Source: Acidobacteriota bacterium
Lineage (GTDB): Bacteria; Acidobacteriota; JAAYUB01
Assembly (NCBI GenBank): GCA_012517875.1
Contig: JAAYUB010000153.1
Span: 1-40,235, forward strand
Direction of reading: 5' to 3'
DNA: 40,235 nucleotides
The position numbers were made by a program, and so were the translations under genes. The notes below the pieces were generated by a model. It was given only the letters and a program-made list of their open reading frames with translations, was not told the origin of the DNA and did no database searches. Shown here piece by piece: positions 1 to 24,729 of the stretch (position 1 is its first letter; each line of letters begins with the position of its first letter).

Positions 1-3000
1 AGGTTGTCGTTGTCGTCGTAAGCGTACCGCGCCGCAAGGGGCACGTCGGGCAGGCCCGCCACGTCCGCGCCGGGCCAGTTCCATGACTCCTCGCTTATCC
101 GGTTGCGCCAATCGTAGGCCAGGGTACGCTCCCGCCCGGCCGGATCGGCCGCCGCCGCCAGGTTACCCACTGCGTCATAGGCGGACGCCCAGGCCGCCCC
201 GACAAACGGCACCGCCGGCCGGCCCGCCTCAAGGCCCGGGATCTCGCCCGCGACCCGATCCCACTGGCGATATGCGGTCATCCGGTCCCACGGGTCGTAA
301 ACCCGTTCCACCACGCGGCCGGCCGCGTCGATCTGGAACCGCACCGGTCCGGCCAAGTCGTAGATGTAGCGGGTCGCCGCCGTCACCGCGGCGCCGGCCT
401 CGGCCCCCTGCACCACTCCGGTGGGCCGGGACAGCTCGTCCCAGCCGTACAGCGTCCGGTGCCCCATGGGCGAAACAACCGCGCTCCGCCGGCCCAGGCC
501 GTCATACTCGGTTGTGGTCTGCAAGACATCGGCGTCGGTGGCGCTGACCTGTTCGTTGCGGCCGTTGTAATCGTAGGTCCAAGCCGGGCGCACGCCGTCC
601 CCGTACTTGGCGTCCAGCCGCGGGCTGTATTCCCGGATCCGGTTGCCGGCCGCGTCGAAGTCGTACCGCCACCGCGCCGTGGCCTCGGTTTCGGACGTCG
701 CGCCGGATTCGGCATCGGCCAGCCGCAACCCAGTGGTCGTCTCGACCTTGCGTCCGGCCGCGTCGTACGCATGCCGGATGGCGGCGTCGGTGGCGTCGCT
801 CTCCACCACCAGCCGATTGTCGGAATCGTACCAGCGTCGCCACAGCGTCATCTCATCGGCGATGCCGCCGTAGCCGGTCGCCGCGTCGTAGAGGGCCGCG
901 TCCACCGCACCGCGGCTGGCCGCGATCTCGCGGCCCAGCGGATCCAGCACGATCCGGGTGAGCCGATCCATGGCATCCCACTCGAGGCGCTGGAGCAAGT
1001 GGTCCAGGTAATCGATCCGGACCGGCCGCTCACTGCCCGCCGGCTGCGCCGCCCCGGCCTTGCCGCCCACCGGTCGCTGCTCCACGGCCTCGCGGAACTC
1101 GGTCATCCGGCCCAGCGCGTCATAGCCATAGCGGCTGACTACGCCGCGGCGGTTCATCTCCAGCACCTTCCGCCCGCCGCCGTCGAAGCCGAAGCGTTCC
1201 TCGCGCGGCAGGTCGCCATTTTCCGGGAACACCGTCAGGAATTCCCGGCCGGTGGCATCCAGCTCATGGCGGGTGATCCGTCCCATGGCGTCGGTGTCGG
1301 TCCACCAGGAGGCGCCGTCTCCGCCGGCGACGAATGGACTGTACTCGTACCGGTGCTCCTCGGTCCAGACGGATTGGCCATCAGCCTCCCGGTGCAACCG
1401 CTCGGTCACGGGTCGGCCCACCGGATCATACTGGAACTCCGTGAGCAGAACTCGACTCCCGGCCCGGTCCACCTGGACCGCGCGCCGGCGCACGACGCCC
1501 TCCCGAAAGAACTCCTGATCGATCCGGAACCCTTCCGGATCCTCCGTCCGGACCAGCCAGCCCGTGGGCGCATGCCAGAACCGGGTTTGCCGCCCCAGCG
1601 GGTCGGTCTCCTCCCGCCGGTGGCCGAAGGCGTCGTAGCGGACTTCGGTCACCAAGAGCAAGCCGTCGGGATCGATTTCGCGGCGATGGAGGCGGCCGTG
1701 GCCGTCGTGGAGCGTGCGGGTGCGCACGCCGGTCTGGACGTTGGTCTCCTCGCTCCACTGACCGGCACCGTCGGCGTAAGAGTAAGTCCAGTCGTAGGTG
1801 TCCCGCCCGTCGGCGTCACCCAGGGCGTTGCCGGCGGTGCCGAGCGTTTTCCGGAGGGGCCGCCCGGCCGCGTCATAGCGGAAACGCGTCCAGCGGCCGC
1901 GGGTCAGGTCCCGCTCCTCCACCAGATTCCCCGCCGGATCGTAGTCGGATTCCACCACCTGCCCCAGGGCGTTGGTGACGGCGATCCGCCGGCCCAGCGC
2001 ATCGTAGGCGTAGGCCATCACTCCCCCCGCGAAGTCCGACTCGGCCACCACCCGCCCCTCGGCGTCGTACTGCCAGAAGCGGGCCCAGCGCCCGGCCGCC
2101 TCCGGCGGCCGCGCCACCGGTTCGGCCGGCGCCCCGTCGTCCGGTCCCACCGGCCCGGCGATCTCCCAGGCCAGCCGGCCGTGGCCGTCGTAGAGGAAGC
2201 GCCGCAGCCGGCCGGCGGCGTCGCGTTCCCAGGCCTTCCGGCCGGCGATGTCCCAGCCCTGCCGGCGGACGATCCGCCCGTTGACCTGGTGCTCCCGCTC
2301 CAGTCCCCGCTCGTCGTAGAAGAAGGCGTGGTGCAGCGGCCGGCCGTCATCGGGCGTGACGGTCTCGGCCCGGGCGACCAGGTTGCCGTTGCGGTCATAG
2401 TCGCTGGTCTCCCGCAGGACGATCAGGCTGCCGTCAACCGGGTGGGGGAAGGTCACCTGGCGGCTCCGGACGCGATCCAGGCTGTCCAACTCCACCTGCT
2501 CATCCAGCCGAGCCAGCGGATTGCCGATCTCCTCCACCACCCGCGTCCGGACCTGGCCGCCGGGATAATAGCTGGTCGTTTCCAGATAGTCGGGCGTCGA
2601 CGCCCCGCCCAGGCCGTCGGTCACGCGCACGGCCACCGGCCGGTGATACGCGTCGAAGCGCCGGTGCTCTTCCCGGCCTTGGGGGCCGCACTCGTACGCG
2701 CACTCGCCCCAGTCGTTCCACTCGCGCCGGGTCACCCGGCCCGCCGGATCCACCGTCCGGGCGGGGCGCCCGTGCCGGTCGTGGTTTTCGAAGCGGGTGG
2801 CGCCGCCGCGGGGATCCACCGTTTCCACCAGGTTGCCGGTGGCGTCCCAGTGGAACCGGGTCTGCAGGTCCAGGCAGTCGTCGCCGCTCCGGAACTTGTG
2901 GGCCAGCCGGCTGAACGACCGGAGCCCCACGGGGAGCCCCTTCCCCAGCCCCTGGGCCGCTTCGGCCGGGACGTCCTCGCGCACGGCCGTCACCCGGCCG

Positions 3001-3900: not shown

Positions 3901-6900
3901 TAGCCGCTCTCCAGCGGCGAGAAGGGGTCCCGGAAATGGTACCGGACCCTGGTCTTGGTGTAAAAATCAAAACTGCCGTCCGGATTGGGCGTCAACTGGC
4001 AATGGAAGCCCCGCTGGGGCACCAGCCGGCCGTTGATCCGCCGGAAGCGGATCCCGGAAGCATCTCCCCCGTAGATGATGTAGTTCTCGGAGTCCTCCCG
4101 GACCAGGGCGATCCGGCTGGACATCTCCCAACCCGGGCCGGCGGTCCCCTTCGGATTGAAGGCGCCGCTGGCCCAGGTGCGCCGGAGCGACAGATCCAGG
4201 CCCTTGTCTTCCAGAAATAAATCCTGCCGGTCGTGCAGCAGGAAACCTTCCGACAGATCGACACCCTGGACAAAGGTCTTGCCCACGCTCAGGGACCGGG
4301 CCGAGTGATAGCCCACCCGCAGGAGACCGCTGAAGGTGTCCGTGACGGGCTGACCGCCGGCCATGAGGTTCAGGGCCTCGACTTCGAGCTCGAAGCGGTA
4401 GTCCCCCGGATCGGCGAACACGCTGGCATCAGGCATCTGCCCCGGCGGGAAGAGGCTCACCGACTGCAATTTGGTCAGTGTGTCCACGTTGTAGACCGTT
4501 CCGATGTGCCGCTGATAGATCTCGATCTCGGCGGCGTCCACCGTGCGGTACAGACGGGCCGTCTGCACCCGGATGGGAAAATTCGGAATGAAAAATATCG
4601 GCGGAACCTGTTCCCGCAGCTCGATGCCGCCGGTTTCCTCGAACAACTCCCGGGGCATGGCTTCGATGGAGTAGGCCAGGAAATGGGTCTTCAGTCTCAA
4701 CAACTCCTCGAAACCGACCTTGACCGGCGGGGATTCCAGTACCTGATCGGAGCCCTGGCCCATGATGCCGACGCCATCCAGTCGAACCCAACCGCTGAAA
4801 TCGGCTGGCAACTTCTCGGGCGGCAAGCCGCAGTGCCGGTCGATACTGCGCGGCTGGTAGGCGGTTCCGGCCGGGATCAGCACGCAGCGCAGATCCGGAA
4901 CGGCGGAGTCGACCTGGTGGAACTCAAAAGCGGCCTCCAGCGCTGACATCACGACGCTTTCCGTTTGCCCTGTAAACTGGGGCGGATTCACCTTGTAATA
5001 GAACCGAATGTCTGCAGGCACCTGATGTAGAATGATCTGACTGTCGTTGACATCCGCCCGTTTGATCACCGGCACCTTCAACGTGTACACCGGGGCTTGA
5101 GCATCCGCAAACCACTCCATGCCAATCAACTCGGGAACCAGATCCATCGCCACCAGCGCCACGCCCCCCTGCTGGCCGCATCCGGGCGCCGTGTAGATCA
5201 GTCCGCCATCGACAACCGCTCGACCCGGAATCAACCCGTCCACCGCGATGCGACGGGAGAGAACCGGTTGTCCGTCCCGAAAATCCGACAGCTGCATCCG
5301 GTACATGCCACCGGCGGCAAGCAGATACACGCCCGCCCGCCCCACCGCCAGATCTACCAGTCCGCCTTCGGGGACCGGTTCCGTCCGAAGATGGGTGAGG
5401 ACCAGGGCCTGCATCTTGATGGTCAGCCCGAACACGTTCAGCGTCAGCTGACCCTGGCTGGACAGGTTCAGTGACACCACCAGCGGAGTGCGCTGCGCGT
5501 CACCATGGGTGTCCACGTACGCGGACGGCGCGAAGACCCGCACATGCCGCGCCACGGGGACACCGGGCACCTCGGCCAGCAGCTTCACCCACGCCAGGCA
5601 CCCCGGCACCGTCTCCAGATCCCGCCGGCCGTCGTCTTCCAGAAAGGTCAACATGGAGCGCCGGGTGTCCTCGCTGTGACTGTCGGCCACCGCGACGATC
5701 CGCTGGAAACGGCCGCTGGTGTTCCCGTCGCCCGGCGGCCAGTCGAAGACATCCAGATCCATGCACAATCCCGGTGTCGGCAAGTTTTCCGACACCGACT
5801 CGTTGAGACCGCGCTCGGGCAACAGGCACTCGGCCAACGGCGGCAGGCCACGCCCGGCCGCATCCCTGGTGGCATCGATCAGCCGGTTCAGCGAAAATTT
5901 GAACACCCCGGCATTGACGACCGCGATATAGACGTCATCGCCCAGCCAGCGCATCCGTGCCGGAGACAACGCCGTCTGCGGCCGGGTCAGCGTGGCGGCG
6001 CCCATAAGCTTCAGGGCGTCGGGATGGCCTCGCAGCAAATCCTGGGTTGCCGCCGCATAGAACAGGAGGCCGGAGCTGAACGCCAGTCCGCCCGGCGTGG
6101 TGATGAGGCAGACGCCGAGCTGATCCCCCTTGTCGTCCAGCGGTTGGACCTGGAGATCCAGAACGTGGAGCGGAACCGGCTGGCGCACCCGCAAGGCGCC
6201 CCGAGTCGCGATGGAATAGTCGTAAATCTGCAGTTCGGAACGCTGCCAGGGATTCTCGCTGCCCGTATCGGCCACAACGAAGACCAGCGGCCCCAGCTTC
6301 TGAATCAACGTGGAATACGGCGGCCCGGCCTGCCCCTCATCCACCACTTGCGGTTTAAACGTGCGGAAGGGGATGCGACAGACGCCGTCGGCGGTGTACG
6401 TGTCGATCAGCCGGGCCTGACGGCCCTCCGTGTCCACGAGAAAGGAGCCGCACTCGATAATCAGGCTGTATGCGGTATCCGGCTTCAGCGGTTCTCTGGG
6501 AATCAGACGGACACCGGCATGATATGTCTGGGCGCCCACAGGGTAACTATCCAGCCAGATTCGATCGAGCGGAACGGAAGCCTGTGCATCGCCCTGTTCC
6601 TCGATCCGGATCCGCTGCCAGGACGGCGGCGCACATGCCTCCAGGGTCACCGGCTCGGAAAACAGCAATTCGAACATGGCATGGCAGGACGTGAACCGAT
6701 ACTCCGGCGAGGGCACCACCCGGATGAGTTGAGGATCCGCGCCCGGGATCGGTTGGGTATTGCCGGTCGCTTCGGACGCCACCACCAGGACATGCTCATC
6801 CCGGGCGGTGGAGTTCCCGCTCAGGTCCTTGACCACGATCCGGATCCGATGCGCACCCAGGATGCTCATCAATTGGAAATCGGACGTAAAACCGCCGGCC

Positions 6901-9900
6901 GGATTGCCATCGACCTGAATCTGCCGGTCATCGATCTGAACGCTGATCTCGGCCAATGGTTCGTTGACCGTCAGGGTGACCCGCAGATACAAACCCTGCT
7001 GGATCAGATGCAGTCGGTTGACCGTGTCGGACCATTCGGCATCCGGCACGAACTTTCCGTCCGCAAGCTTGTTCGCCGCCTTGAGGGCCAACGACTCCAC
7101 CACCGGCGGCACCTGTTCAACGCCGGCTTCACTGCTGAGATAGACTCGGCACGAATACCCGTTGGCCGGGAGATATGCTCCAAGCCAATCGAATGCTCCG
7201 GGCAAGATCCGGGTAGCCGGCGCCTGACCGGACCAGCCGGTCTCCGGATCGACCGCGATCACACGGGGAAAGGGCTCAGCGAGCAAGCCGATCAGGGCGA
7301 ACGATCCATCCTCTTGGGTGCTGGCCGTGTATCCATACTGATCGCAGGAGGGCCCGAATACCACCGTGGCGCCCACGACGGGCTTCTCCTCGAGCTCACC
7401 AAGAGTGTTCGGGATTTCCGCAAGCACGTGCCCGACAACGACAGCCATCTGGACGGGGTCGTAGCGATAATACTCAATCACTCCCTGCAGAACGCACAAA
7501 CCCGAGAACGGCGGACAATCATGCACCAGTCGGCCGCCGCGGACCGTGGCCGTACCCAATACCTGGTGCATAGCCACACCCGCGGCCGTCGTCCCCCGAG
7601 TCAAGAGACAGCGGCCGCCGTCGGCTAGTCCGGAGGCCGGGAATGAGACGTTGATTTCCCGCGCGGTTTTGCCTGAGAAATCGCTCTCTAAAACCACCGC
7701 CCCGATATAGCTCAGATCCCCCTGAATCGGCCAGTGAGGTTGGGTCGGCGACTCCAACCGGGTCTTGAGCCGCACGCGGTACGGAAGGGCGGCAGTGGGG
7801 ATCTCGAGGATCAGGCCTCCCGGGCCGGCCACGGTGCCGCCATCGGGGCCGACGTAGTAGAAACCGGCGGTATCGGTGATGACCGGATTGCGGATGACAG
7901 TCTGGGCGCCATCGGCAGTCTCGATCACCACCCGCACATCATCGTAGGGTGAGCCGGTGATGGTCACGGACAGAACGCCGCCTGCGCAGCCGGTGAACAC
8001 GCGCACCTCGCCGGTGGTCTGGTTGATCACCGTGAGCCGGCCACCTGGTGGGATGGGGCAGCCCGGCGCGGATACGGTCAGCGTGCCGGCAGCCGGATCA
8101 GCGGTGATGGTCACGCCGGGCACGGCGCCGCCACTGCCGCCGGCGGCGGCGGTGAAGGCGAACGCGTGGGCCGCAGCCATGGTCCGGCCCCAGCGGTTGG
8201 CCACTTCCGGTCCGATGATGACAGTGTGAGCTGCGCCGGATGCGAAGGGTACAACCGGGGTGGCCACGACGGTCCGGCCATCGTCGCGCAGGCTGACCAC
8301 GCCGGTCAGGGGCACTCCGTCGATCACGACGTCGGCAGCGGATACGCTCACCGCATCGAGGACGTCGTCGAAGGTGATCCGGATCTCGACGTCGGCCGGT
8401 ACGTCGATCTGGCCGTCGAATGGGCTGGTGGCCGCGACCGCCGGCCGGCAGGGCTCCAGCACCAGGTCCAACCGAACGGCGCCCCAGGGTGCCGGCCCGG
8501 TCAACACGGTCTCAGCCTGAGCTCCGACGACATCGTCAACAGCCGTCACGTCCACCATCTCGCCCGGATCGGCGAAGGTCTGCAGGAAATAGCTGCCGGC
8601 GGCATCCGGTGCGGCCACCACCGGCGTCGCGGCTGAGACGACCAATGTTGGATCCGGCGTTCCCGGCGGCGGCAGACCGTCCGCGCGGGTGATGAATCCG
8701 ACGGCGAACACCGGCGGTCGGTCAAGCCGGCAGAGGACATAGTCCCCCCCGGCGACCAGTCCGGGCGCAGGAGTGCCCCCGGGGAGCACCGGCAGGGTGA
8801 CCACCCGGCCGCCCTCCCGCTCGGCCGGACAAGCATAGGTGTAGTGGATCGCCGGGCCGCGGCGGATCAGCCGGTACAGGGACAGGAGATCTCCCGCAGC
8901 GGCGGGAGCATCCAGCTCCACCCGCGCCTCCGGTGGGAGTGGCGTGCTGGCGGCCAGGTGAAAGGCGGTCAGCGGTTCCAGCGCTTCGTCGCCGGGTGGC
9001 GGCACATCCAACGGGTCGAGTGGATGGAAATCGATCCAGGTGCCGTCCGGGAGTTCCGTGGTGAAGATGATCCGGTTGCCACGCTCGTCGATGAGTTCGC
9101 TGGCCGGACCGTCCAGGACTACTCCAGCGGTCGACTCACGCCGATTCATGACATCGACATCGATCCGGCCCTCGACCAGCAGGGCCGGCGGGAACTCCTC
9201 GATTGGACAGATTGGGAATGCCGCCCGGAGTTCCCCGCCGGTTGCGCCGTCGGCCGGCCGGTATAGGACCACGTCCTGGACGTAGCGTTGGCCCTGCACG
9301 GTGGCACCAGAGGTCTGTGCGTACTCCTGACTGAATGCGGCGACCACCGCCGTCCCCGACGGCAAGGGCACGTCGCCCTGTACCCGCAGCTCGGCCATGG
9401 CCACCAGGCCGGTCCCGGCGGGGACCGCCTCGGGATGGACATCGCCACTGCCCTCGGCCAGTCGCTCGCCCAGTTCTTCAGCCAGTGGATCCAACCAATC
9501 GCCAACAGCCGGCCTGGCGGCCGGCGCAGTGGGCGGCGGATCGGCCACCGCCAAAAGGTACTGGCCGCCCCGGTCGATGTCAACGGCCATGCCGTCGGGA
9601 CCCGTGACCAGATTCAGCGGTTCCAGTCGCTGCCAGAGGCCGTTGGACGGATCGCACCGCAGCAGCATCCAATCCCGTCCGGCCTCAGGCAGCTTCCACC
9701 TTGTCTCAAGCCGGGCGGTCGGTTGGAAGATCAGGTCCCATGGGTGCACATCCAGGGCGCCCCAAGGCGCCCAGCCGGGGCTCAGCAACTGGGCCAGGCA
9801 CTGGTCACCGACAGCGGTGACGGACACATCGGTGGGACCGGCCAAGGTGCCGGCGGGCACGACCAAACGGGCACTCCCGGCGTCTGCGGGCACCTCGCCG

Positions 9901-12911: not shown

Positions 12912-12963
12912 TCCAGTTCCCCAATCCCCTGGATAATCAGATATTCCGCCGGACAACATGCCG

Positions 12964-15900
12964 TCACGGCTTGCAGGGATTCCCGTCCTCTGATTCTCCG
13001 ACTGTCACCACCTGCTCCACCAGCACATCACCCAGACGTATGTACACATACCCGTCGTCCAACACCTGCAAATATTCCGGCGTCTCGGGATTACCTCTGT
13101 AGATCCAAATCCAGTAAGCGCCCGGAGGCAACGCACACAGGCGGACCAGACCACCGGCATCCGATTGACCGCTCAGCGCCCAGGGTTCCAACTCGTTGGT
13201 GTCACCGATCTCGGCGTAGACTCCCGCCAGCGGTTGTCCATCGATATCCTGCAATCGAAGGTGCAATTCAGCGCACGTTGGGCTGCACGGTGCAAGCGTC
13301 ACATTGTCTGCGGTCAGCACGCCATCGGGCAGAACCAGCGTCGCGCAGTAGAATCGGCGCTCCCGGTCCCAGGCATACACGTCATAGGCGGTCTCCGGAG
13401 CCACACCCAACGCCTGCCAGACACCCGCAGGCAGTTCAGCCACATCGAGCAGAGCCGGCGGCAGATCCGGGTCGGCCGGGACGAGATCCAGGTCGGTCAC
13501 CGCCGACACCAGCTCACCGGCACCATCCATTACGGCTCCACTGACCACCGACCATCCGGTCATCATATCGCCCAGATCGGTTTCCGGCCCTGTCAGGGTG
13601 ATCTCCCAGGTTTCGCTGCCGTCTCCCTGGCTCGGCGGTCCATCTAGAATCAGGCGCGCCCGGCCGGTCGGAAAATAGCCGAATCCATAGAACCGGCCGG
13701 TGTCCTCACATGCCGACCAGCCGTAACTGACATATTCGCCGCTGGCCAGCTGGCGTTCCCACCGCACGAACGCACTTTCAGGTAGCGGTCTCAGAAATGC
13801 CGCCGACCACAGGCGTCCAGTGACCATATATTCAGAACGCGGCGGGATCTGCACGTCGTCCAGTATTAATTCACCGGCCGGGAAGTTGATATCCGTCCTG
13901 TGATAACCACCGGTTTCATCCAGCGCCTCGAGCTGATACCCCTCCCCCGGCTTCATGCCCAGCACCGTAAACCGACCGAGCGCCACGAGAACCTGATTCG
14001 GGTTTGAATAGTAGAAGAGGTTCGACCCATCCGGCTGATGGGCGTAAACATTCACCCACAGTGGAATGCTCTCGATCGGCAGTCCAGTTTCTTCCGCAAC
14101 ATCACCAGAAACGGCGGTCACCCCGGTTTCCAACGGGATGGCGGCGCCACCGGCGGCCGCAACATCCACCAGGATTTCATCCTGCCCGTCACCTTGTGAT
14201 TCCGGCCATGGCACCACCAGGAGCGCCCGGCCGGTGGGCAGATGGTTGGAACCGAAATCAAAGTACCCTTCCTCAACCGTGCAGGCACTCCCCAGAGGAT
14301 AGAACTCGCCCGATACCGACTCCGCCCAAAGTTCCACTGGCCATTGGATCAAAGCGGCCCTGGCGCCGGCCGAGAACGCATTACCGTAGACAGCATACAA
14401 GTTCACCGGCAGGAGATGGATATCGGTGAGCACCAGTTGATGAGCCGGGAGCGTGACGGTGGCCCCGTAAGCGTTTCCGCCCGCATCCCAGGCAATCACA
14501 TCGTAAGTCACCCCGGGTTTCGCTCCCCGGATGAACCAGTTGCCGGAGGATTGGTTGGCAGTTGGCTCGCTAAGATCCGATTCATGCGGCCGGACCTGCA
14601 ATCCGACCAACCCGGTGACAGGAGCACCGCCCGCGTCGCGAGCGTCACCGCGTATCAGGCTGATCCGTGTTTCGAGCAATACAGTGGTCTGACCCGCCGC
14701 AGCATCCAGATCGGTCCAATCCTCTCCTTCCCCCTGGCTGCGGGGCCAGCGTGAAAGAATCCGCGCCCGACCCGTGGGCAGGAACGCATTGTTGAACCTG
14801 AAGGCGCCGTCGTAGCCGGAACTGATTGTCTGCGTGAGCACATATCTCCCGGCCGCTTCTTCCCGCAGGAGTTCCACGCTTTGATCCGCCAGCCTGGTGA
14901 TTCCATCAGCGGCTCTCACGATGCCGGTGACGGTGTATTGGCCGAATGCGCTGGATATCACAATCAGCCGATGCACACCGGGTTCGAGCACCAGCGGTAC
15001 TGCCGGTGTGCCTCGTCCGTCTACCTGGGCTGTATACTGAAGGTCCATGTCAGCCGGCAGGCCCGGGAACAACGCCTCGCCATCATCCCCAGTCCTGTGT
15101 GCCCAATTTAGAAACGCCGGAAATTGCGTCGAACGGACCTGAACTTCGGAATCCGCGATCGGCACACCTGCCTGGATTTCTGTGCGAACAGTCAGATCGG
15201 CACCGCCCCGATCCAGTACCAACGCGTGCAGGTCCAGGCTTTCGTCTGCCGGCACCCGAATCAGCGTCTCGAACAGCCATCGGCCGTCTGGGTGCTTGGC
15301 CAGGATTTCCAGATCGATTTCTCGGAGCGGATCCAGGTACACAAACCGCCCGTCGGCATCCGTGGTGCCGGCATTAACAGTCTCACTGTAACTGTTCCGC
15401 CTGAATATTAAAATGGATACACCTGTCTGGCCGATGCCCAGGTGGTCCACCACGCGGCCAGTCAGGTAATCTTGTTCTAGAACCATAGTGACGGCCGTTG
15501 TACGAGCCGCCGTCACCGTGACCGGTTGGGTGGCAGTACCAAATAGGGAGGTCACCGTCAGCAGGTAATCACCGGGCAAGACACCCGGAATCAGTCCGCC
15601 GCCACGTGACACCCGGCCGTGCCGGACACAAGCATCACCTGCCCGTTCCAATCGGAGGGTGCCATCAGGAAGCGGGTCGCCGGTGCTCAGGGTTACTGTC
15701 ACGGCTACCGCACCGCTATCGGACAAGACAAGCAGCTGGTCAACAGCCACCGGCTCGTCTGCGGTAAGCAGCACCTGGCTTATCGTCAACCAGCCACACT
15801 CCGGCGATCCGAAGATAATATCCGTCAGGCCCAATGGCAAAGAACGCGGCGGCGACGTCGGCAGAGATTGGAAAACACCCTGCCAGTCTGTATCGGCGAC

Positions 15901-18900
15901 CCGGCAACGGCGATATGGCACCGCTTCGCCGCGCAACAGCAAGGATTGCCCGGCCAATGGGTGTTCGTCTGGTGTAGCGTCCAGCAGCCGGCCGGAAACA
16001 CCGCCCACCAATGACGGGAGTTCGGGTGACGAGGGATCCGCCCCGCCAGCCCAGTTCAGATTGAGCACTTCGCGCCACCGTTCGTCCGGCACCCCGGCTA
16101 AAATCTCGGCCGGACAGGCGGCCAGGCGTTCCAGCGTCTCCACCGCATCGGATCGTGTCGGCTGCGCGGTCACACCCACGGCCAGGCCCAGCCGGCCGGG
16201 CATGCCGGGGGCGCCTGCCGGAATGACCAGATCGGTCCATCGCATGACCAATTGGCCGGCAGCGATCTCGACTGCCGACGGTGCCCGTGCCGTCTCCGCT
16301 TCGGCGAACACGACGCCCAGCGTGGGCATATTGGGCTCCATGGCGTCGTCCTTGTCCGCATCGTCGTCCAGCACCAGCCAGCGGTCCGTACCCCCGGAAT
16401 CGACGACGGCATCTCCACTGGATGTGGCGACCACATCCCAGTTCAACGCCTCCGGCAGCCGGAACGTCATCTCGATTGCAACCGGCACCGGAGTCAGTGC
16501 CGTATTACCCAACCACTCGACTACGCGTGCAAAATAACCGTCTGGCGGAACGAATATCCGTTTTTCCCAGCTTAGATCGTCCGAACCCAGATCCCCGGTC
16601 AGGCGGATTTCATGACCGTTCACGGCCAGCATCCCCTCCGGCTGTGCCGGCATGACGTGGGACATCCCGTCCACCCAGACCGTCACTTCCGGAACCAGGA
16701 CATCGGTCATCGGCTGGATCAGCGGATCCCACTCCAATCCGCCGTCTGTCTGGATGCGGAAACTGTAGTCATTGCCGTCTTTGACCGTATGCGGCAGAGC
16801 GACAGTTCGGACCACCTGGAATGTACCGTTGTACCGGGCGACGTTGCCGAGGGAATCGGTCACTGCCACACTCCAGACGTTGTCGCCGACGGCCAGCATG
16901 TCGTGATCCCACGGAACTTCGATGTAGATCCGGCCGTCATCGAGTACGAATTCAGTCCGGGTGCTCCCGTTGACGGTGACCACGAGACTGTCCGCATCCA
17001 AGTCGCAATTGTCCGTTACGTTGATGTCGAAGACGACCGTATCGGCCACGATACCCGCCCCCGCTGCCGGACTGGTCACGGTAATGATCGGCTGAGCTCC
17101 GTCCAGGGTGAATTCACTCAGGGCTTCCGCGATGTGGCCGGCGGCATCGGAGACCTTCATGTGAATGGTGTGGCCGCCGCCGACCAGCGGATCGGCGCCG
17201 GCGGGCGGATTCCAGACGCCTCCGGACGGGGTCAACTCAAATTCGGCCGTCCGGTCAACTGCATCGACTGTCACCCGGATGCCGGCCACATCGACGCCGG
17301 TGCCGTTGTCGCCGCAGGTAAATGCCAGCGGCGGCAGCGGATTGCAGAAATCTCCGGGACCTGGCAACTGCAGGGTCAGGTCAGGCGGCTGGCCGTCCCA
17401 GACAAAGTTGAAGCCGTAAGCAGGCGCGGTCCAATGGTAGATGTCGGTCATCGTGGCGGCGACATCGACTGGGCCGTCGCCTGCTGGCGCAAACGTTCCA
17501 TCAAGACGCCACATGCCACCGCCCTCGTCGACCAGGGTGGTGTCAGGACAGAGCGCCCCGGCGGCGGTCAGTGTCCCGGCGGCCACCGGATGGGCCGATT
17601 GGAACCGGACGCTCAGTCCGACCGGGATGACATCCACCACCAGTGCCGCGGCCGGCTGGTGCTCCAGCCAGGTGACGGCCGACCGGCGCACGGTGAAGTC
17701 GCCGGACCAATCGGCATAGTTGCCGACGAGGTCGGCCACTTGAACGTTAAGAGTCCAGCTACCGTCAGGCAGCTCGTCGATGGGCCCACAGGCGGCGCCG
17801 GACGCACTGAGCTGGAAGATCTCCAATGCCCGGCCGACTCCGCCTGCATCGGTCAGAGTCAACTGCACCGATTCTGGATCGACGCCGCGCAGAGCGTCGG
17901 CAAACGTCACCGCCAGCTCGGGTCGGGGAACCGGAAACATCTGGCCGGACCAGGCTGCGGTGACCACCGGCGGCTGAGTATCCTGCGTGTCGAAGGTCCA
18001 TCCATACGGCGCCGGCATGGCGTTACCGGCCACATCGCGCCAGCCATCGAGGACCACCCCATAACAGGCATCCGACTGCATACCGCCGTCCGGCAGGATA
18101 TTCAAAATGTGGCCGTCAGGCGACCATTCCAAGGAAGCTGCCGCCGGCACGCCGTCGCGACTCCAGGCGACGATGCCACTATTCGGAACAATGGGTTCGC
18201 TGAAGGTGACCTGAACCGGCCCGGTCGGATCCACCTGGATGGCCCCTGCTGGCGGGGTTACCGTCGACACCGCCGGCGGCGTCAGATCCACGGTTCGGAA
18301 GACCAGCTCCACCACCGCGCCCAAGGGATTGCCATTGGCGTCGGGAACGTCAGCTTCAATCACCAGTCGATAAGCACGAGAGTCGGCCAGCCCCGCCGGA
18401 ATTCCCTCGAAGACGATAGCGTCGACCGATGGCAGCACCGTCAGTCCGACCGGCCGCCAGACGGCGCCGTCGTAACTCTCTAACCGGATCCAACCGGGAT
18501 GGCCGGTCAGCCACTCGGCTTCCAGAGCCTCGCTGAAGGTGACGATCAAATGAGCGTCCAGCGGCACGGCCGTCTCCGGCCAGGTGGTGCCACCAGACCA
18601 GTAGGAGACTGCGTCGACGAACGGCGGGGTCCGGTCCAAAGTCAGGATGCCCAGGTCAACCCATGCCTCGTCGTCCACACCGGCCACCGACACGGCCAGT
18701 TGCAGCCGGCCACCGAACGGATCGACCACCTGCAACCGGCCGGGCAGGACCGGCAGATGTTCGAAGACGAAGATCCCGCTGTCACCGGTGGTGGCCAGCC
18801 GTTCCACCTCGCGCCCGTCCGGCCGCCGGCCCAGCCAGCGCACCGTCAGGTGGGAGGCCGCGGCGCCGTCGTCGGTCCATAGCACACCTCGCAGGCAGAA

Positions 18901-21900
18901 GGCCGGCTCCAGAGCCACCACCAAGCCTTCAATCCGTTCCCCGTCGGCCAGGTCGCCTTCGGCGGTTCCCTCCAAGGCGTGGTGGCGGTCCTCGGCCACC
19001 AGACGGAAATGGCCGGCCGGCACCTCGGGGAAGAAGAAGGCCCCCTCGTTGTCGCAAGCGGTTTCCGTCCGGAATTCGGGCACTTCGGTCTCGAGCCGTA
19101 GCACCGCCCCGCTCACCGGGTGGGTGCCGGCCTGGTTCCAGACCGCGCCACCCAGGGCGCCCACCCCGCTGAGCACCATCACCACGTCGTCATCGGCAGG
19201 CACATTGATCGGCTGAGAAATCCGGTTGACGCCCGATCCGGTCCAGGCGGCCAGGGTGTAGTCACCGAACAAGACGGAAGCGAACCGGAAGGTCCCTGTG
19301 GCGGTGGCGATCTGGCGATAGCTCCGCCCTTCGGCCAATGGAAGCAGTTCGATCCGCGCGTACGCAGCGCCGCTGCCGTCGGCGGACTGGATGGTTCCAG
19401 CCAAAGTCGCCATCGGCGCCAGGGGCACTACCAGGCAGGCCGTCTCGCCCGGCTCGAGCATGGCCTCAGCATAACCGGCCACCCCGGACGGATCGGCCAC
19501 CCGCACATCCACGCGGCCGCCGGGAACACCCGGAACGTAAAACCGTCCATCGGGACCGGTGGTTGTCTCAATGTCCCGCTCGGAATATGGCGAACCAGCA
19601 CACGGATGGATTCCGATCGTGACCCGGCGGGCGCTCAGTGACGATGAATCGGTGCAGACGACCGCGGCCGGATCGCCGTCCACCACCACCCCTTCCACCC
19701 CTCCCAAGGGATCGAGGACCAGTTCCATCGATTGCGGATCGTACTCGACGGATGGGATATCCACCTCGAGAACCGCCCGGCGGCCGGTGGCAAAGTCCTC
19801 CGCCCGGAGGATGTATTGTCCGACGGCCACCGCCGGCAGGACGAAGGCACCCAGGTCAGCCATTTCGGAATCGGTCACGGTGGCTGCCACGAGTTGGCCG
19901 GCCGCGCTGCGCAGGGTGATTTCCGCCCCTGGCACAGGCGCCCCGTCCGGCGGAGCGCCGTCGCGAACGACGCCGTGGAGAGTGACCACCGGGGTCATCA
20001 CCAGGTTGACGGTGAACATGCCACCGTCGCCCAGAATCTCGACGCCGCCGGTCGACGTCCGGACAGTCTCGCCGATCAAAACAACAGCGGACACCGTATA
20101 GGAACCTTCCCAGACAGCGTTGAATTGGAAGTATCCTGGATCGTCCGGTGCCCCGGTATAATCGGTGTCCCAAATGCTCTCGGCCCGGGCGCTCCAGGCG
20201 GGTTGTCCCTGCCGACTGACGGTCAACCAGGCATCCTGGAGCCGTTCTCCGTTGGCATGGAACAGGTGCACCTGAAGGGTGTTCTGCCCCAGCATGCTCA
20301 AGGTGACATCCATGTCGCCGTCGGCAGCGAAATAGAGTTCCCTCCACGCCCTGTCTCCGGTGTAGCCATCTTCAGCTTTGAGCACGTAGGCGCCAGCCGG
20401 CAGAGGTCCGGAAATGGCGAACCGTCCGTCCGCGTCAGTCCGGCAATCCCAGCACCGCCCGCCATGACCGGTCAGGGTCAGGGGAATGCCCGGCCGAACG
20501 GGTGTCACGCCGTCTCGTGCGTATAAGGTGCCGGTCAGGGTGCCGACCCCATCGGTGACGCCCAGCACCAGATCCACGCCGGCCAGGTCGGTTCCGGTGG
20601 CCAGGCCGCGCACTACCGCCGGCGGATAGAAGATATTGCCGGTGAACCGGATCGTGAAGGGACCGTCCCAGACATCGGTAAAGGCAAAGGTGCCGTCGGG
20701 GGCCGTCATTGTCCGGAACCGATCGGTCCAGTAGACCATCTCTCCGGTGGTTGCGCGGTCCAATCCGTCCAGGATCAAGGGCACACGGACTCCCTGGCCG
20801 GAAGCGTCCCGCACCTGGCCGGCCACTGTCCGACGGCCGCGCAAGCGAATCACCAGCGAGGTGCCTTCGGCCGGAACATCCACCGCTCCCGATTCCACCT
20901 CGCCGTCACACGCAGCCTGATACCGGTTGAGGCCCTGAGTCAGCCAGACCAGAAATCGGCCGTCAGCATCAGCAATTTCCGTGATACCGCTCAACCGGAC
21001 GGTGGCTCCGGCCGCTGCGGCTTTATCGGCTCGGATGACGCGACCCTGGACTGGGGCCAGGGCGGCCAGAACTAATTGGACCTGATGGGCGCCGGCTGTG
21101 ATCCAGACATGCTCCGTTACGCTGTCCCAATAACCAGGCCGAACGGCGGTCAACCGGTAGTGGCCGAACGGGATCGGCTGGACCCGGAATCGCCCGTCGC
21201 TGTCGGTTTCGAGATCGAGCTGGACTGTTTCCCATTCATCGGCCAGCTCCAAATGGACCGGCGCAAACGGGACGGCGTCCCAGGCTCCTCCGAAACCGGG
21301 TGTAACCACCCGGCCTTCGAGCGTGCTACCACCGGCAAACAGCACCTGCACCTCGGCAGTGCCGCCCGGCGCGACCGCGCCTTCGGCGGTGGCTACCGCC
21401 CCGCCGCTCGGGTGGATGCAGCGGATACGGAAAGAACCCCAAGGCACGGCAGTGAACGCGAATGCTCCGTCGCCGTCAGTCCACCCCTCGGTACTCCAAG
21501 CGGCACCGGGCACGCTGAGCGTCAGCCGGGCATAGGGGACGCCTCGTGCGCCGTTTGGCCCATCTTCCATGACCTGGCCTGTGACGCCTGCTCCGCCTGC
21601 CACCAGCAGTACCACTGCCGTGTCGTTGGGGCCAGCGATGTATCCGGCGCCTTCGATCCGCCGTCCGTCCCTGAGCCGGGCTTCAGCCCGGAACGGGCCC
21701 ACGGTGACGTCGTCGGCATGGAAACGTCCGTCCCCATCCAACAGCGCTGGCTGGCATCTGCCGTCACCACTACTGTGGATTCGAACGCCGAGGATGCTGT
21801 CGATGGGTGTCCCGAGCTCGTCCACCACCTGGCCCACCACCGCCCCTGAACCGTACAGGATGATCTGGGGATGGAGCACCTGGCCATCCGCCTGGAACAT

Positions 21901-24729
21901 CAGCGGCTCCCGCCGGCGGGAGCCTGTTGCCGGATCTCCAACTATCAGAAACAAGCCTGCCGGATATATGTGGATGAAATCCAGTTGAAACGTGCCGTCG
22001 TCGTTTCCGTCGAAACGGCTGAGACAGACATCCTGAATCCCCAGACCAGACCTGGTGACGGCCCACAACTCCACCGACGGTCTGACCACTCCCCGGCCAT
22101 CGGGGTAGCGTACGCGTCCCTCGACGCGGCCACCGGCCTCGTACGGTGAATCCGGATTGAGAATCCCCACCGGCCGGGTGTCCGCGACGACTGCTCCGTC
22201 GAGGCTCTTCACCTGTCCGATGGCCAACTCCGTCGTCACAAACTTGCCTACTGGCCGGTTCACGGCAACGCCGACAGTGCGTCCAGAACCGATCGGTGCT
22301 GCCAGCAGCACCTCGTTGTCGATGCATTCGAAGTATCCCAACGCCTCACCGGCCCGAAACCCGACCGGCCGGTTGAACAAGACCAGCACCCCGCGTCCGA
22401 ACTCGTCGGCACCGTGGAAAAGTTCCGGAGTCAGTTTCAGCACACACTCCACAACAAAGGGTGCCAGGGGCAGCAGGTGCTGGTCCAGTGGCGGCACAGC
22501 AGCCACGTTGTTACTGCCTTGTTGGATCTCAACGGCGACAGAAGTCCCTTGCAACAACATCGATGGAATCACCACCTGTTGACCCGGTGCGAGTTGGAAA
22601 GAGTACTTGAGGCTCTGGCACGTCTCCGATGACGCTGGACGGATGATCTCCAGCTCGACTGTTCCGCCGCCGGTCAGGGTGACTGAATCCCCATCCAGAG
22701 GGATCAGGCAAAGGAATTCCGGTCCGTCGCTGACGCGGACGACTCTCCCCCAATCGGATGCTGGCGTCAGTGCGGTCCGCAGAAGCGCAAAATCACCGCT
22801 GTATCCGGCGTGGAGAACGAGCGTGGCCGCCATGCTTGCCGGTTGGCCGGCTGGATCCAGGACAGCGGCGAGCGCCGCCATGAACTCAGCACCTCGGGGA
22901 CTCGATTCCAGGGTATGGTGGAAGCCCTCGTCGTTCCAGGCGATCTTCGCCAGATCTTCGGTGAACGAAGCGGCAACAGCCACCGGATTCCGGCCAGCGG
23001 CGGTGGCGAGCCCCGCTTCAGTGACGGCCCGCGCGAGCCCCTCAACCGATGATCTCTTAACGGTTCGGAATGCAGAGGGCAACAGCAAGGGTTGGGTTCG
23101 GCTCAGCGTGTGGCACAAACCCAGGAACGCCAGCGCTCGGCCGTAGAGAGGTTCTCCGAGCCGCGCCGCCACGGGGGGCAGCACCAGTCGGTCCGGATTC
23201 ATGGGTTGGCCAGCGGTGTCCACGCCGAACACCAACCGGGCGCCCACTTCCAGTCCGGCTGAATCGCCGGTGCCGTAATTGGCAGTCACCATGCCTGAGC
23301 GCAGCGCCCGAAAGCGGTAGCTCAGCACCACCGTCTCGCCCGGCGCCAGCACCGGGCGGCAGTAGATGGATGGATCGGCCGGACACGTGTCGTCCGTCGG
23401 GTAATCGGCGCCCAGCCATTCGACCCCGGTTATTGAGTCGGGGGCCAGACTCAACCGGAACCCGTTGGCGGGCACGTCCGACACGTTGGTCACATGGGCC
23501 TGGACGGAGTACGCGGCGCCGCGTTCGACCCGGTCGGGATGGATGAAGCTCAGCGAGAACCGCGGATTGTCGCGCACCGCCACTCCGCCCCGGGCCCGCC
23601 CCTCGATGGGCCAGCTCGGTTCGCCGGAGGCGGGCTCCAGGCGGCCGGCGATGTGGATGTCGAACTCGTGGTAGCCGACCTCGTGGCCCACCACGATCCA
23701 GCCCGCCGCGCCGGCGGCGCCGGGGGCGATCACCGGACCGGTGGCGCCGACGACGTCCTGGACCGCGGTGTTGGCATCGTCGGCGACCGGGGCCAGGCTC
23801 AGGGGGTCGCCCGGCTGCCAGTCCGTGCTCGCGGGGAGCGCCGCCTCCGCCGTCAGGTCGGCCAGGCGGTAGCCGCTCGCCGGCGGCAGGGCGTTGCAGA
23901 GGACCAGTTGGACGCTGAAGTGCCCGTTGAGGAACCCCACCGAGCCGGGGATGAGGATGAGACCGGGGAGGCGCACGTCGGCCGGCGGCAGGCCCGGCAC
24001 CGCCACCCCCGAGATGTCCAGGTCCACCGCGCCGATGGCGCAGTCCCCCTGCCCCACGTCCAGCAGCCCGCCGAATTCGGCGGGCGTCACGGGGACGGCC
24101 GGCGACGCGTGGATCACGGGGAACGCGTACTCCACCACCTGCCCCTCGAGCTCGAACCCCACGACGAACTGATAGTTCTGGTAGGCGCTCTCGTCGAAGA
24201 CGACGCCGGCGGCAAGCATCTCGGCCATCGTCATGGGCTCGGCGGTGACCCAGGCGATGAACAGGTCGCCGCCCACGTCCACGGCGGCGGTGTCGGGCGC
24301 GGCGTAGAGGAAGTCGCGCCCCGTGGCGAGGTTGACCAGCCGGATGTTGCGCAGGTGGTAGCGGCCCGGCGCGGTGAGGCCGTCCAGGAGGAACTCGCCG
24401 CCCACCGGGCACGCCAGCGCCCGCGGGAAACCCGGCGCGGCGGCCGGCGCGTACAACTCGGCGCGGACCTCGTAGCGGGACGCCAGGTACTCCCGGACGG
24501 CGCCGGCGTAGCCGGCGGCCGGATCGGCCAGCTCGATCCGGGTCCGGAGGCGCGCGGGCACGCCGGGCGGCACCACCTGCGCCACCGGCTCCACCTGCAG
24601 GCGGAACGCGGTGACCGGCACCTCGAAGCGGTGCAGCCGTCCGCCGCGGCCCTGCGCCATGGCGGCGGACGCCAGCAGGGCAAGGCCGACGCACGCGGCC
24701 AGGAGGCGCCGCGCGACGCATTCCGTCAT
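12964..24729 (-). CDS. Giant secreted protein of carboxypeptidase-regulatory-like and Ig-like modules, 3921 aa
   Basis: The start is placed at ATG 24729 because it begins a clear signal peptide (MTECVARR, a hydrophobic core, then cleavage near AMAQG). The frame stays open up to a GTG at 24927, but that codon overlaps the proposed promoter. Modules in order: an N-terminal beta domain (about 25-470); a short helical part (about 554-650); a long run of carboxypeptidase-regulatory-like repeats with GxVxGxV, DGxF and GxYxL patterns (about 862-2030); two Big_5-like domains beginning TPPFVDAVS and TPPAVSTVTP (about 2037-2255); Ig-like repeats (to about 2650); and a second regulatory-like run including three long PTGRAR repeats (about 2914-3810). 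No enzyme motif was seen. It ends 52 nt before the YD-repeat giant, so the two are probably cotranscribed. The likely role is a surface-attached or released stalk or adhesin; partner and ligand are unknown. Confidence 0.9.
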   Translation of the reverse strand: MTECVARRLLAACVGLALLASAAMAQGRGGRLHRFEVPVTAFRLQVEPVAQVVPPGVPARLRTRIELADPAAGYAGAVREYLASRYEVRAELYAPAAAPGFPRALACPVGGEFLLDGLTAPGRYHLRNIRLVNLATGRDFLYAAPDTAAVDVGGDLFIAWVTAEPMTMAEMLAAGVVFDESAYQNYQFVVGFELEGQVVEYAFPVIHASPAVPVTPAEFGGLLDVGQGDCAIGAVDLDISGVAVPGLPPADVRLPGLILIPGSVGFLNGHFSVQLVLCNALPPASGYRLADLTAEAALPASTDWQPGDPLSLAPVADDANTAVQDVVGATGPVIAPGAAGAAGWIVVGHEVGYHEFDIHIAGRLEPASGEPSWPIEGRARGGVAVRDNPRFSLSFIHPDRVERGAAYSVQAHVTNVSDVPANGFRLSLAPDSITGVEWLGADYPTDDTCPADPSIYCRPVLAPGETVVLSYRFRALRSGMVTANYGTGDSAGLEVGARLVFGVDTAGQPMNPDRLVLPPVAARLGEPLYGRALAFLGLCHTLSRTQPLLLPSAFRTVKRSSVEGLARAVTEAGLATAAGRNPVAVAASFTEDLAKIAWNDEGFHHTLESSPRGAEFMAALAAVLDPAGQPASMAATLVLHAGYSGDFALLRTALTPASDWGRVVRVSDGPEFLCLIPLDGDSVTLTGGGTVELEIIRPASSETCQSLKYSFQLAPGQQVVIPSMLLQGTSVAVEIQQGSNNVAAVPPLDQHLLPLAPFVVECVLKLTPELFHGADEFGRGVLVLFNRPVGFRAGEALGYFECIDNEVLLAAPIGSGRTVGVAVNRPVGKFVTTELAIGQVKSLDGAVVADTRPVGILNPDSPYEAGGRVEGRVRYPDGRGVVRPSVELWAVTRSGLGIQDVCLSRFDGNDDGTFQLDFIHIYPAGLFLIVGDPATGSRRREPLMFQADGQVLHPQIILYGSGAVVGQVVDELGTPIDSILGVRIHSSGDGRCQPALLDGDGRFHADDVTVGPFRAEARLRDGRRIEGAGYIAGPNDTAVVLLVAGGAGVTGQVMEDGPNGARGVPYARLTLSVPGAAWSTEGWTDGDGAFAFTAVPWGSFRIRCIHPSGGAVATAEGAVAPGGTAEVQVLFAGGSTLEGRVVTPGFGGAWDAVPFAPVHLELADEWETVQLDLETDSDGRFRVQPIPFGHYRLTAVRPGYWDSVTEHVWITAGAHQVQLVLAALAPVQGRVIRADKAAAAGATVRLSGITEIADADGRFLVWLTQGLNRYQAACDGEVESGAVDVPAEGTSLVIRLRGRRTVAGQVRDASGQGVRVPLILDGLDRATTGEMVYWTDRFRTMTAPDGTFAFTDVWDGPFTIRFTGNIFYPPAVVRGLATGTDLAGVDLVLGVTDGVGTLTGTLYARDGVTPVRPGIPLTLTGHGGRCWDCRTDADGRFAISGPLPAGAYVLKAEDGYTGDRAWRELYFAADGDMDVTLSMLGQNTLQVHLFHANGERLQDAWLTVSRQGQPAWSARAESIWDTDYTGAPDDPGYFQFNAVWEGSYTVSAVVLIGETVRTSTGGVEILGDGGMFTVNLVMTPVVTLHGVVRDGAPPDGAPVPGAEITLRSAAGQLVAATVTDSEMADLGAFVLPAVAVGQYILRAEDFATGRRAVLEVDIPSVEYDPQSMELVLDPLGGVEGVVVDGDPAAVVCTDSSSLSARRVTIGIHPCAGSPYSERDIETTTGPDGRFYVPGVPGGRVDVRVADPSGVAGYAEAMLEPGETACLVVPLAPMATLAGTIQSADGSGAAYARIELLPLAEGRSYRQIATATGTFRFASVLFGDYTLAAWTGSGVNRISQPINVPADDDVVMVLSGVGALGGAVWNQAGTHPVSGAVLRLETEVPEFRTETACDNEGAFFFPEVPAGHFRLVAEDRHHALEGTAEGDLADGERIEGLVVALEPAFCLRGVLWTDDGAAASHLTVRWLGRRPDGREVERLATTGDSGIFVFEHLPVLPGRLQVVDPFGGRLQLAVSVAGVDDEAWVDLGILTLDRTPPFVDAVSYWSGGTTWPETAVPLDAHLIVTFSEALEAEWLTGHPGWIRLESYDGAVWRPVGLTVLPSVDAIVFEGIPAGLADSRAYRLVIEADVPDANGNPLGAVVELVFRTVDLTPPAVSTVTPPAGAIQVDPTGPVQVTFSEPIVPNSGIVAWSRDGVPAAASLEWSPDGHILNILPDGGMQSDACYGVVLDGWRDVAGNAMPAPYGWTFDTQDTQPPVVTAAWSGQMFPVPRPELAVTFADALRGVDPESVQLTLTDAGGVGRALEIFQLSASGAACGPIDELPDGSWTLNVQVADLVGNYADWSGDFTVRRSAVTWLEHQPAAALVVDVIPVGLSVRFQSAHPVAAGTLTAAGALCPDTTLVDEGGGMWRLDGTFAPAGDGPVDVAATMTDIYHWTAPAYGFNFVWDGQPPDLTLQLPGPGDFCNPLPPLAFTCGDNGTGVDVAGIRVTVDAVDRTAEFELTPSGGVWNPPAGADPLVGGGHTIHMKVSDAAGHIAEALSEFTLDGAQPIITVTSPAAGAGIVADTVVFDINVTDNCDLDADSLVVTVNGSTRTEFVLDDGRIYIEVPWDHDMLAVGDNVWSVAVTDSLGNVARYNGTFQVVRTVALPHTVKDGNDYSFRIQTDGGLEWDPLIQPMTDVLVPEVTVWVDGMSHVMPAQPEGMLAVNGHEIRLTGDLGSDDLSWEKRIFVPPDGYFARVVEWLGNTALTPVPVAIEMTFRLPEALNWDVVATSSGDAVVDSGGTDRWLVLDDDADKDDAMEPNMPTLGVVFAEAETARAPSAVEIAAGQLVMRWTDLVIPAGAPGMPGRLGLAVGVTAQPTRSDAVETLERLAACPAEILAGVPDERWREVLNLNWAGGADPSSPELPSLVGGVSGRLLDATPDEHPLAGQSLLLRGEAVPYRRCRVADTDWQGVFQSLPTSPPRSLPLGLTDIIFGSPECGWLTISQVLLTADEPVAVDQLLVLSDSGAVAVTVTLSTGDPLPDGTLRLERAGDACVRHGRVSRGGGLIPGVLPGDYLLTVTSLFGTATQPVTVTAARTTAVTMVLEQDYLTGRVVDHLGIGQTGVSILIFRRNSYSETVNAGTTDADGRFVYLDPLREIDLEILAKHPDGRWLFETLIRVPADESLDLHALVLDRGGADLTVRTEIQAGVPIADSEVQVRSTQFPAFLNWAHRTGDDGEALFPGLPADMDLQYTAQVDGRGTPAVPLVLEPGVHRLIVISSAFGQYTVTGIVRAADGITRLADQSVELLREEAAGRYVLTQTISSGYDGAFRFNNAFLPTGRARILSRWPRSQGEGEDWTDLDAAAGQTTVLLETRISLIRGDARDAGGAPVTGLVGLQVRPHESDLSEPTANQSSGNWFIRGAKPGVTYDVIAWDAGGNAYGATVTLPAHQLVLTDIHLLPVNLYAVYGNAFSAGARAALIQWPVELWAESVSGEFYPLGSACTVEEGYFDFGSNHLPTGRALLVVPWPESQGDGQDEILVDVAAAGGAAIPLETGVTAVSGDVAEETGLPIESIPLWVNVYAHQPDGSNLFYYSNPNQVLVALGRFTVLGMKPGEGYQLEALDETGGYHRTDINFPAGELILDDVQIPPRSEYMVTGRLWSAAFLRPLPESAFVRWERQLASGEYVSYGWSACEDTGRFYGFGYFPTGRARLILDGPPSQGDGSETWEITLTGPETDLGDMMTGWSVVSGAVMDGAGELVSAVTDLDLVPADPDLPPALLDVAELPAGVWQALGVAPETAYDVYAWDRERRFYCATLVLPDGVLTADNVTLAPCSPTCAELHLRLQDIDGQPLAGVYAEIGDTNELEPWALSGQSDAGGLVRLCALPPGAYWIWIYRGNPETPEYLQVLDDGYVYIRLGDVLVEQVVTVGESEDGNPCKP
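13290..14940 (-). repeat. Three tandem ~180-190 residue repeats with PTGRAR and SQGxG motifs
   Basis: Three diverged units lie near the C-terminus of the 3921-aa protein. Their anchor motifs are LPTGRAR (14761-14781), LPTGRAL (14221-14241) and FPTGRARL (13651-13674), spaced 180 and 189 codons. Each anchor is followed by a Pro-x-SQG-(E/D)G segment (WPRSQGEGED, WPESQGDGQD, PPSQGDGS). Later come a KPG/APE-xxYxxxAxD segment and an LPxxxLxxxDxxLxP segment. Each unit opens with Y-x-V-x-G, as in carboxypeptidase-regulatory-like domains, so each probably contains two such folds. Confidence 0.8.

What the first reader, a model, noticed from the sequence alone, without database searches (positions are those of the whole stretch)
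1..24729. Tandem pair of giant secreted genes: modular stalk protein followed by YD/RHS shell protein
Two adjacent same-strand genes encode 3921 and more than 4300 residues, both with signal-peptide-like N-termini and 52 nt apart. RHS/YD proteins are established as toxin or adhesin shells. A dedicated giant partner built only of carboxypeptidase-regulatory-like and Ig-like modules is not a standard RHS companion such as VgrG, an immunity gene or a Tc subunit. I infer a two-part surface or secreted assembly, with the first protein as scaffold.
Basis: partly seen in the sequence, partly recalled or inferred. Interest (0 to 1): 0.62.

Follow-up and report, generated by a model that had tools for sequence, protein, structure and literature searches.

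The report
Giant stalk–toxin gene pair in Acidobacteriota
Two neighbouring giant genes, one for a long beaded surface-type protein and one for a toxin carried in a protein shell, travel together across a whole bacterial phylum, which suggests that the first is a dedicated, previously undescribed partner for presenting or delivering the second's interchangeable toxin.

Summary
A 3921-aa 'stalk' gene (24729-12964, minus strand) is followed after 4-52 nt by a giant YD/RHS gene (open at the contig end). The pair is not private to this genome. Congeners G001 and G002 carry complete versions (RHS 5486 and 5471 aa). Across 396 Acidobacteriota genomes the stalk's unnamed N-terminal domain occurs in 40 and the partner's pre-core module in 35. 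34 genomes have both, in 22 families. In 29 of 33 informative loci the two giants are neighbours on one strand. 15 of those partners have a YD/RHS shell; eight complete ones lack it.

The RHS member is a polymorphic toxin. The congeners' proteins match up to an abrupt C-terminal switch. Tips elsewhere include HINT+GHH, WHH, Ntox47 and deaminase. A small immunity-like gene (two match Imm11 and SUKH-4) abuts the toxin in 8 of 11 complete cases. The window's own tip and immunity gene lie beyond the contig end.

That the stalk physically scaffolds, anchors or exports the toxin is inference. The nearest described system, bacterial teneurin-like toxins, has no known delivery machinery or such partner.

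The parts
12964..24729 (-). Stalk gene, 3921 aa: signal peptide, unnamed ~650-aa N-terminal domain, carboxypeptidase-regulatory-like and Ig-like modules
   Evidence: ORF and translation; Pfam; orthologues in G001, G002 at 84-87% aa identity
24655..24729 (-). Predicted Sec signal peptide of the stalk (MTECVARRLLAACVGLALLASAAMA|Q)
   Evidence: sequence reading; hydrophobic N-terminus recurs in most stalk loci
22717..24666 (-). Family-defining N-terminal domain of the stalk (profile A1)
   Evidence: 763 bits to A1; alignment with 23 invariant columns; no Pfam/NCBIfam match in this member and no PDB match
18418..21927 (-). Part of the stalk rich in carboxypeptidase-regulatory-like (TTR-fold) modules; bounds approximate, residues about 1001-2170 of P0002
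   Evidence: CarboxypepD_reg E=6.8e-66, 11 stretches in the protein, best at residues 1203-1282
17986..18285 (-). Big_5 Ig-like domain of the stalk (best of two)
   Evidence: Pfam residues 2215-2314
12912..12963 (-). Junction between the two genes; only 12960-12963 is non-coding if the upstream ATG at 12959 is used
   Evidence: no terminator-like or promoter-like site found at 12700-13200
1..12911 (-). YD/RHS gene, 4303 aa (4319 from ATG 12959), truncated by the contig start; complete relatives have 5471-5486 aa
10992..11216 (-). Glucodextran_B Ig-like domain of the RHS protein (best of three)
   Evidence: Pfam residues 582-656
8127..10271 (-). Pre-core module of the RHS protein (profile A3), shared with YD-plus and YD-minus partners
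   Evidence: 827 bits to A3; BLAST to partner proteins
4047..4262 (-). DUF6531, start of the RHS core
   Evidence: Pfam E=2.2e-5 and 8.4e-6
93..2879 (-). RHS/YD repeats
   Evidence: PF05593 matches over the cut-off at 93-179, 408-506, 729-830, 1530-1637, 1845-1943, 1908-2006 and 2802-2879
25188..25217 (-). Weak sigma-70-like promoter match upstream of the stalk, 9 of 12; at chance level
   Evidence: 1 found, 0.3 expected

Best explanation
This is a conserved two-gene polymorphic-toxin unit of Acidobacteriota. Gene 2 encodes a Sec-exported giant protein: a long Ig/TTR-type pre-core, then a YD/RHS shell expected to enclose a variable C-terminal effector, with a cognate immunity gene just downstream; in the window the tip and the immunity gene lie off the contig. 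Gene 1 encodes a Sec-exported bead-on-string protein whose own ~650-aa N-terminal domain marks a family that travels with the pre-core of gene 2. Most likely the stalk docks to that pre-core and holds the toxin at, or extends it from, the cell surface, so that the shell is presented to a neighbouring cell and the tip is released there. Shown by sequence: the pairing, the co-occurrence, the interchangeable tips, the immunity-like genes and the export signals. Inferred: physical docking, surface location, contact delivery and an antibacterial target.
For: Adjacent same-strand giants in 29 of 33 informative loci, often overlapping or a few nt apart. Stalk domain A1 and partner module A3 both strong in 34 genomes, 6 stalk only, 1 partner only, 355 neither; 22 families with both. 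Two pairs are kept although the genes are unlinked (G033, G220). Congener RHS proteins switch abruptly to unrelated C-termini with different abutting small ORFs. Tips of linked partners match PT-HINT, Tox-GHH, WHH, XOO_2897-deam, Ntox47; downstream ORFs match Imm11 and SUKH-4. Rhs_assc_core over cut-off in 5 of 5 partners tested. Hydrophobic N-terminal export signals in most stalks and partners. An OmpA-domain gene between the pair in G043 and G339.
Against: No structure, binding, localisation or expression data. The structure prediction of the stalk N-domain failed. Five loci have the reverse order, and eight complete partners have no YD shell, so the stalk is not tied to the shell itself. 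G000 also holds short RHS genes with no stalk beside them, so a stalk is not needed for every RHS protein. No dedicated outer-membrane exporter was found. Co-occurrence was not corrected for shared ancestry.
Confidence: 0.55

Rival explanations
1. Co-regulated but independent: the stalk is an adhesin or biofilm protein that brings cells together, and the toxin acts on its own. They share an operon because both are needed at cell contact, without a complex.
For: The stalk has only adhesin-type repeat modules besides its N-domain; G033 and G220 keep the two genes apart in the genome.
Against: The co-occurrence is with one carrier module (34 of 35 genomes), not with YD shells in general, and it persists when the YD shell is absent; that is tighter than expected from shared ecology alone.
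Confidence: 0.27
2. The stalk is a dedicated export factor: it helps the giant partner cross the outer membrane, as a new kind of two-partner secretion.
For: Strict partnership and Sec-type signals on both proteins; no T6SS sheath in 5 of 12 pair-bearing genomes.
Against: No beta-barrel or TpsB/ShlB-like domain in the stalk; ShlB matched in only 1 of 12 genomes and far from the pair.
Confidence: 0.1
3. T6SS-delivered Rhs toxin with an unrelated large neighbour.
For: This genome and six others of the 12 tested have a VipB sheath gene.
Against: The RHS protein begins with a signal peptide and ~2850 residues of Ig/TTR-type modules, with no PAAR match; five pair-bearing genomes have no sheath match.
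Confidence: 0.03
4. Tandem duplicates: stalk and partner are two copies of a generic Ig/TTR repeat surface protein, and adjacency is only a leftover of duplication.
For: Both share Big_5 and carboxypeptidase-regulatory-like modules; A3 hits those modules in some stalks.
Against: The defining domains differ: A1 is confined to stalks, and A3 hits in stalks are piecemeal, mostly the Big_5 end of the model; order differs between lineages; unlinked pairs still co-occur.
Confidence: 0.05

Closest known systems
Bacterial teneurin-like proteins (TLPs; PMC13018210)
   Same: YD-shell toxins with adhesion-type N-terminal modules, signal peptides, polymorphic C-terminal toxins including HINT and nucleases, and an immunity gene immediately downstream; known in Acidobacteriota. 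One A3 member matches the teneurin TTR-like domain PF25020.
   Different: No FN-plug or NHL match before the core. The paper describes an immunity gene but, in the parts I read, no giant partner gene. Partners here can lack the YD shell.
Rhs/YD polymorphic toxins with immunity genes and orphan C-terminal cassettes (PMC3482391)
   Same: RHS core, Rhs_assc_core, interchangeable tips, immunity genes downstream and orphan RHS ends.
   Different: Very long Ig/TTR pre-core and a dedicated giant stalk gene; not tied to VgrG or PAAR.
CDI / two-partner secretion (CdiB-CdiA)
   Same: Works-like only: a two-gene unit with a giant exoprotein, exchangeable toxin tip and immunity gene (general knowledge).
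   Different: No ShlB/CdiB-like exporter by the pair, and none in 11 of 12 genomes; the partner gene is itself a giant repeat protein, not a barrel.
Tc (ABC) toxin complexes
   Same: A giant RHS shell that works with another giant protein (general knowledge).
   Different: No Tc-specific domain in either protein in the Pfam scan.

Membership tests
Rhs/YD polymorphic toxins | RHS/YD repeat core with Rhs-associated core end | tested here: met
   RHS_repeat and DUF6531 in the window protein; TIGR03696 over cut-off in congeners and three distant partners; the window's own core end is off the contig
Rhs/YD polymorphic toxins | Variable C-terminal toxin domain after a conserved core | tested here: met
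   G001 and G002 identical up to an abrupt switch; several toxin Pfams in relatives. Not testable in the window itself
Rhs/YD polymorphic toxins | Cognate immunity gene just downstream | tested here: met
   small ORF within -10 to +13 nt in 8 of 11 complete YD partners; Imm11 and SUKH-4 matches. Function not tested
Bacterial teneurin-like proteins | FN-plug and NHL propeller directly before the YD shell | tested here: inconclusive
   no Pfam teneurin NHL match in seven ~1000-aa stretches before or at the core; one weak LVIVD hit below cut-off; the published HMMs were not available
Bacterial teneurin-like proteins | Teneurin TTR-like domain | tested here: inconclusive
   PF25020 matched 1 of 17 pre-core sequences, E=5.8e-5, not the window's
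T6SS Rhs effectors | PAAR or VgrG N-terminus and a T6SS | tested here: not met
   signal peptide and no PAAR match; 5 of 12 pair-bearing genomes without a VipB match, though this genome has one
Two-partner secretion / CDI | ShlB/CdiB-type outer-membrane exporter | tested here: not met
   PF03865 in 1 of 12 genomes, not at the pair
Tc toxins | TcA and TcB-specific domains | tested here: not met
   no such Pfam match in either window protein

The most novel reading that the evidence does not exclude
The stalk family is the missing delivery or presentation component of Sec-exported YD-shell (teneurin-like) toxins in Acidobacteriota: a new two-protein contact-delivery device in which one giant scaffold docks a giant carrier whose end is exchangeable between shell-enclosed nucleases or deaminases and shell-less enzymes such as cell-wall peptidases.
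Probability: 0.3. Interest if true: 0.82.

Novelty: new variant of a known kind. Interest (0 to 1): 0.62.

Why it matters
How YD-shell toxins of the teneurin-like kind reach and enter their targets is stated to be open (PMC13018210). A partner gene found in 34 of the 35 genomes that hold one carrier module gives a concrete candidate to delete, tag or solve. It also points to an undescribed ~650-aa domain family and shows that the carrier's pre-core, not the YD shell, is the conserved element, so shells and tips look like exchangeable payloads.

Tried and rejected
The A1 profile found no PDB sequence relative. The genome-contig scan found only the congener. The plasmid tblastn found one partial relative. 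A search for a conserved third gene around the pair gave only scattered clusters. T6SS, two-partner secretion and Tc membership were tested and not met. The missing RHS end was not found as a near-identical piece in other contigs of G000; only short RHS genes at 52-63% identity appeared. Literature searches in the open-access library found no report of this pair.

Full report
What is there. The window is a whole contig (G000:C153, 40,235 bases) of a 4.02-Mb genome. The one relative named in the annotated collection is an Acidobacteriota MAG. On the minus strand lies a 3921-aa ORF (24729-12964), followed 4 nt later by a frame that runs off the contig at position 1. The first protein has a Sec-type signal peptide, 11 carboxypeptidase-regulatory-like stretches and Ig-like domains. 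The second has Glucodextran_B, Big_5, DUF6531 and RHS repeats. dN/dS between congeners is 0.23-0.27 for the stalk and 0.24-0.38 for RHS, so both are maintained proteins.

Complete versions. G001:C180 (same length as JAKQOW010000126.1) and G002:C145 carry the same pair with the RHS gene complete (5486 and 5471 aa). Over the last part of the core and ~140 residues beyond it the two RHS proteins are nearly identical; they then become unrelated. Each is followed at 2 or 13 nt by a different small ORF (149 and 246 aa). Both contig edges then hold a fragment of a further RHS ORF; in G002 it is a second RHS core end. The two congener tips have no Pfam match; to my eye they carry nuclease-like motifs, which is a reading and not a test.

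Polymorphic toxins across the phylum. Tips of other linked partners match PT-HINT + Tox-GHH (G053), WHH/Colicin-DNase (G333), XOO_2897-type deaminase (G367), PT-HINT + Ntox47 (G367) and HINT + an AHH hit below cut-off (G371). The YD protein of G068, separated from its stalk by other genes, ends in a Tle1-like lipase. Downstream ORFs match Imm11 and SUKH-4 in two cases. Partners without a YD shell end in a VanY-type peptidase (G043), a phosphodiesterase-type domain (G067) or, by eye, a lytic-transglycosylase-like region (G114). Rhs_assc_core (TIGR03696) is above its cut-off in all five partners tested.

The stalk family. The first ~650 residues of the stalk align with 12 relatives at 21-90% identity with 23 invariant columns. 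The window member has no Pfam or NCBIfam match; other members have only weak hits such as CARDB, and there is no PDB match. In 396 Acidobacteriota genomes this domain (A1) is strong (E<1e-45) in 40, nearly always near the start of a giant ORF. Two other stalks have the same carboxypeptidase-regulatory-like/Ig-like make-up. Outside the phylum, a partial relative (E=4e-36) sits in a row of three large genes on a Thiodictyon plasmid.

The pairing. I fetched the neighbourhoods and called ORFs. In 33 loci with a strong A1 domain the stalk's 3' end is on the contig. In 29 of these a giant same-strand partner is adjacent: 21 directly, 8 with one smaller ORF between. The stalk comes first in 24 and the partner in 5 (G056 twice, G268 twice, G347). 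Exceptions are G033, G220, the apparently frameshifted G334, and G068 where other genes intervene. 15 of the 29 partners have YD repeats, 8 complete ones have none, and 6 are truncated. All but G197_C10 and G371_C7, recognised by their YD repeats, have a BLAST match to the pre-core of the window's RHS protein, YD or not; G197_C10 has a weaker A3 match. Profile A3 of that region is strong in 35 genomes, of which 34 also have A1 (Fisher p about 1e-41 by genome and 1e-19 by family, not corrected for ancestry). In G033 and G220 stalk and partner are on different contigs, yet both are present.

How it probably works. Shown by sequence: most stalks and partners start with a hydrophobic export-type signal; the genes overlap or lie a few nt apart in most directly adjacent loci, and no terminator-like site lies between them in the window; the RHS protein has the anatomy of a polymorphic toxin. 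Inferred: the stalk docks the partner's pre-core and displays the payload on the surface, and the shell opens at a target cell. In two loci (G043, G339) an OmpA-domain gene sits between the pair, a hint of envelope anchoring. Delivery by T6SS is unlikely: there is no PAAR match, and 5 of 12 pair-bearing genomes have no sheath match, although this genome has one. Two-partner secretion is not met. An independent adhesin plus toxin remains the main rival.

Known relatives. Bacterial teneurin-like proteins are the closest: YD-shell toxins with adhesion modules and immunity genes, with no obvious delivery machinery (PMC13018210). Their NHL domain was not recognised here with Pfam, so membership is open. 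The general polymorphic-toxin survey (PMC3482391) covers acidobacterial toxins; the passages I searched mention no such partner. I did not read either paper in full.

Limits. The statistics are not corrected for shared descent. Genomes are drafts, ORFs were called mechanically and some are split. The strong/weak threshold (E<1e-45) was set after seeing the lists, and the family count assumes the 87 family labels shown. No structure, expression or binding data were obtained. The window does not contain its own toxin tip or immunity gene.

Noticed in passing
L181:4237-6921 (G000:C93) and L182:5483-8389 (G000:C176): Two short RHS genes (894 and 968 aa) with similar signal-peptide-like starts and different ends, no stalk beside them; look like compact Sec-exported RHS toxins.
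   Followed up: partly
L183:107-9243 (G000:C107) and L186 (G002:C102): Further giant RHS ORFs (3045 aa and 2831 aa, both cut by contig ends) in this genome and a congener.
   Followed up: no
L188:2676-5654 (G053:C40): A 992-aa RHS-end ORF with another tip downstream of the main toxin gene, like an orphan cassette.
   Followed up: no
L180:11569-28331 (Candidatus Thiodictyon syntrophicum plasmid pTs417): A1-type domain (E=4e-36) in a row of three large genes: carboxypeptidase-regulatory-like, S8 peptidase and Ig-like protein; no YD repeats and no A3 match.
   Followed up: partly
L050:17045-18352 (G043) and L161:3645-4907 (G339): OmpA-domain gene between stalk and partner, a possible envelope anchor in that family.
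   Followed up: partly
G000:C104:82000-82899 and G000:C127:3130-3681: T6SS sheath (VipB) matches in this genome, one strong and one weak; not linked to the window.
   Followed up: no
window 33178-36300 (-): 1040-aa ORF that by eye has sensor beta-propeller repeats and a C-terminal GGDEF-like domain; no link to the finding shown.
   Followed up: no
L185:6859-19998 (G010:C204): A 4185-aa RHS gene preceded by what seems only a short remnant of a stalk (A1 positions 7-125), possibly stalk decay with the toxin kept or a sequencing frameshift.
   Followed up: no
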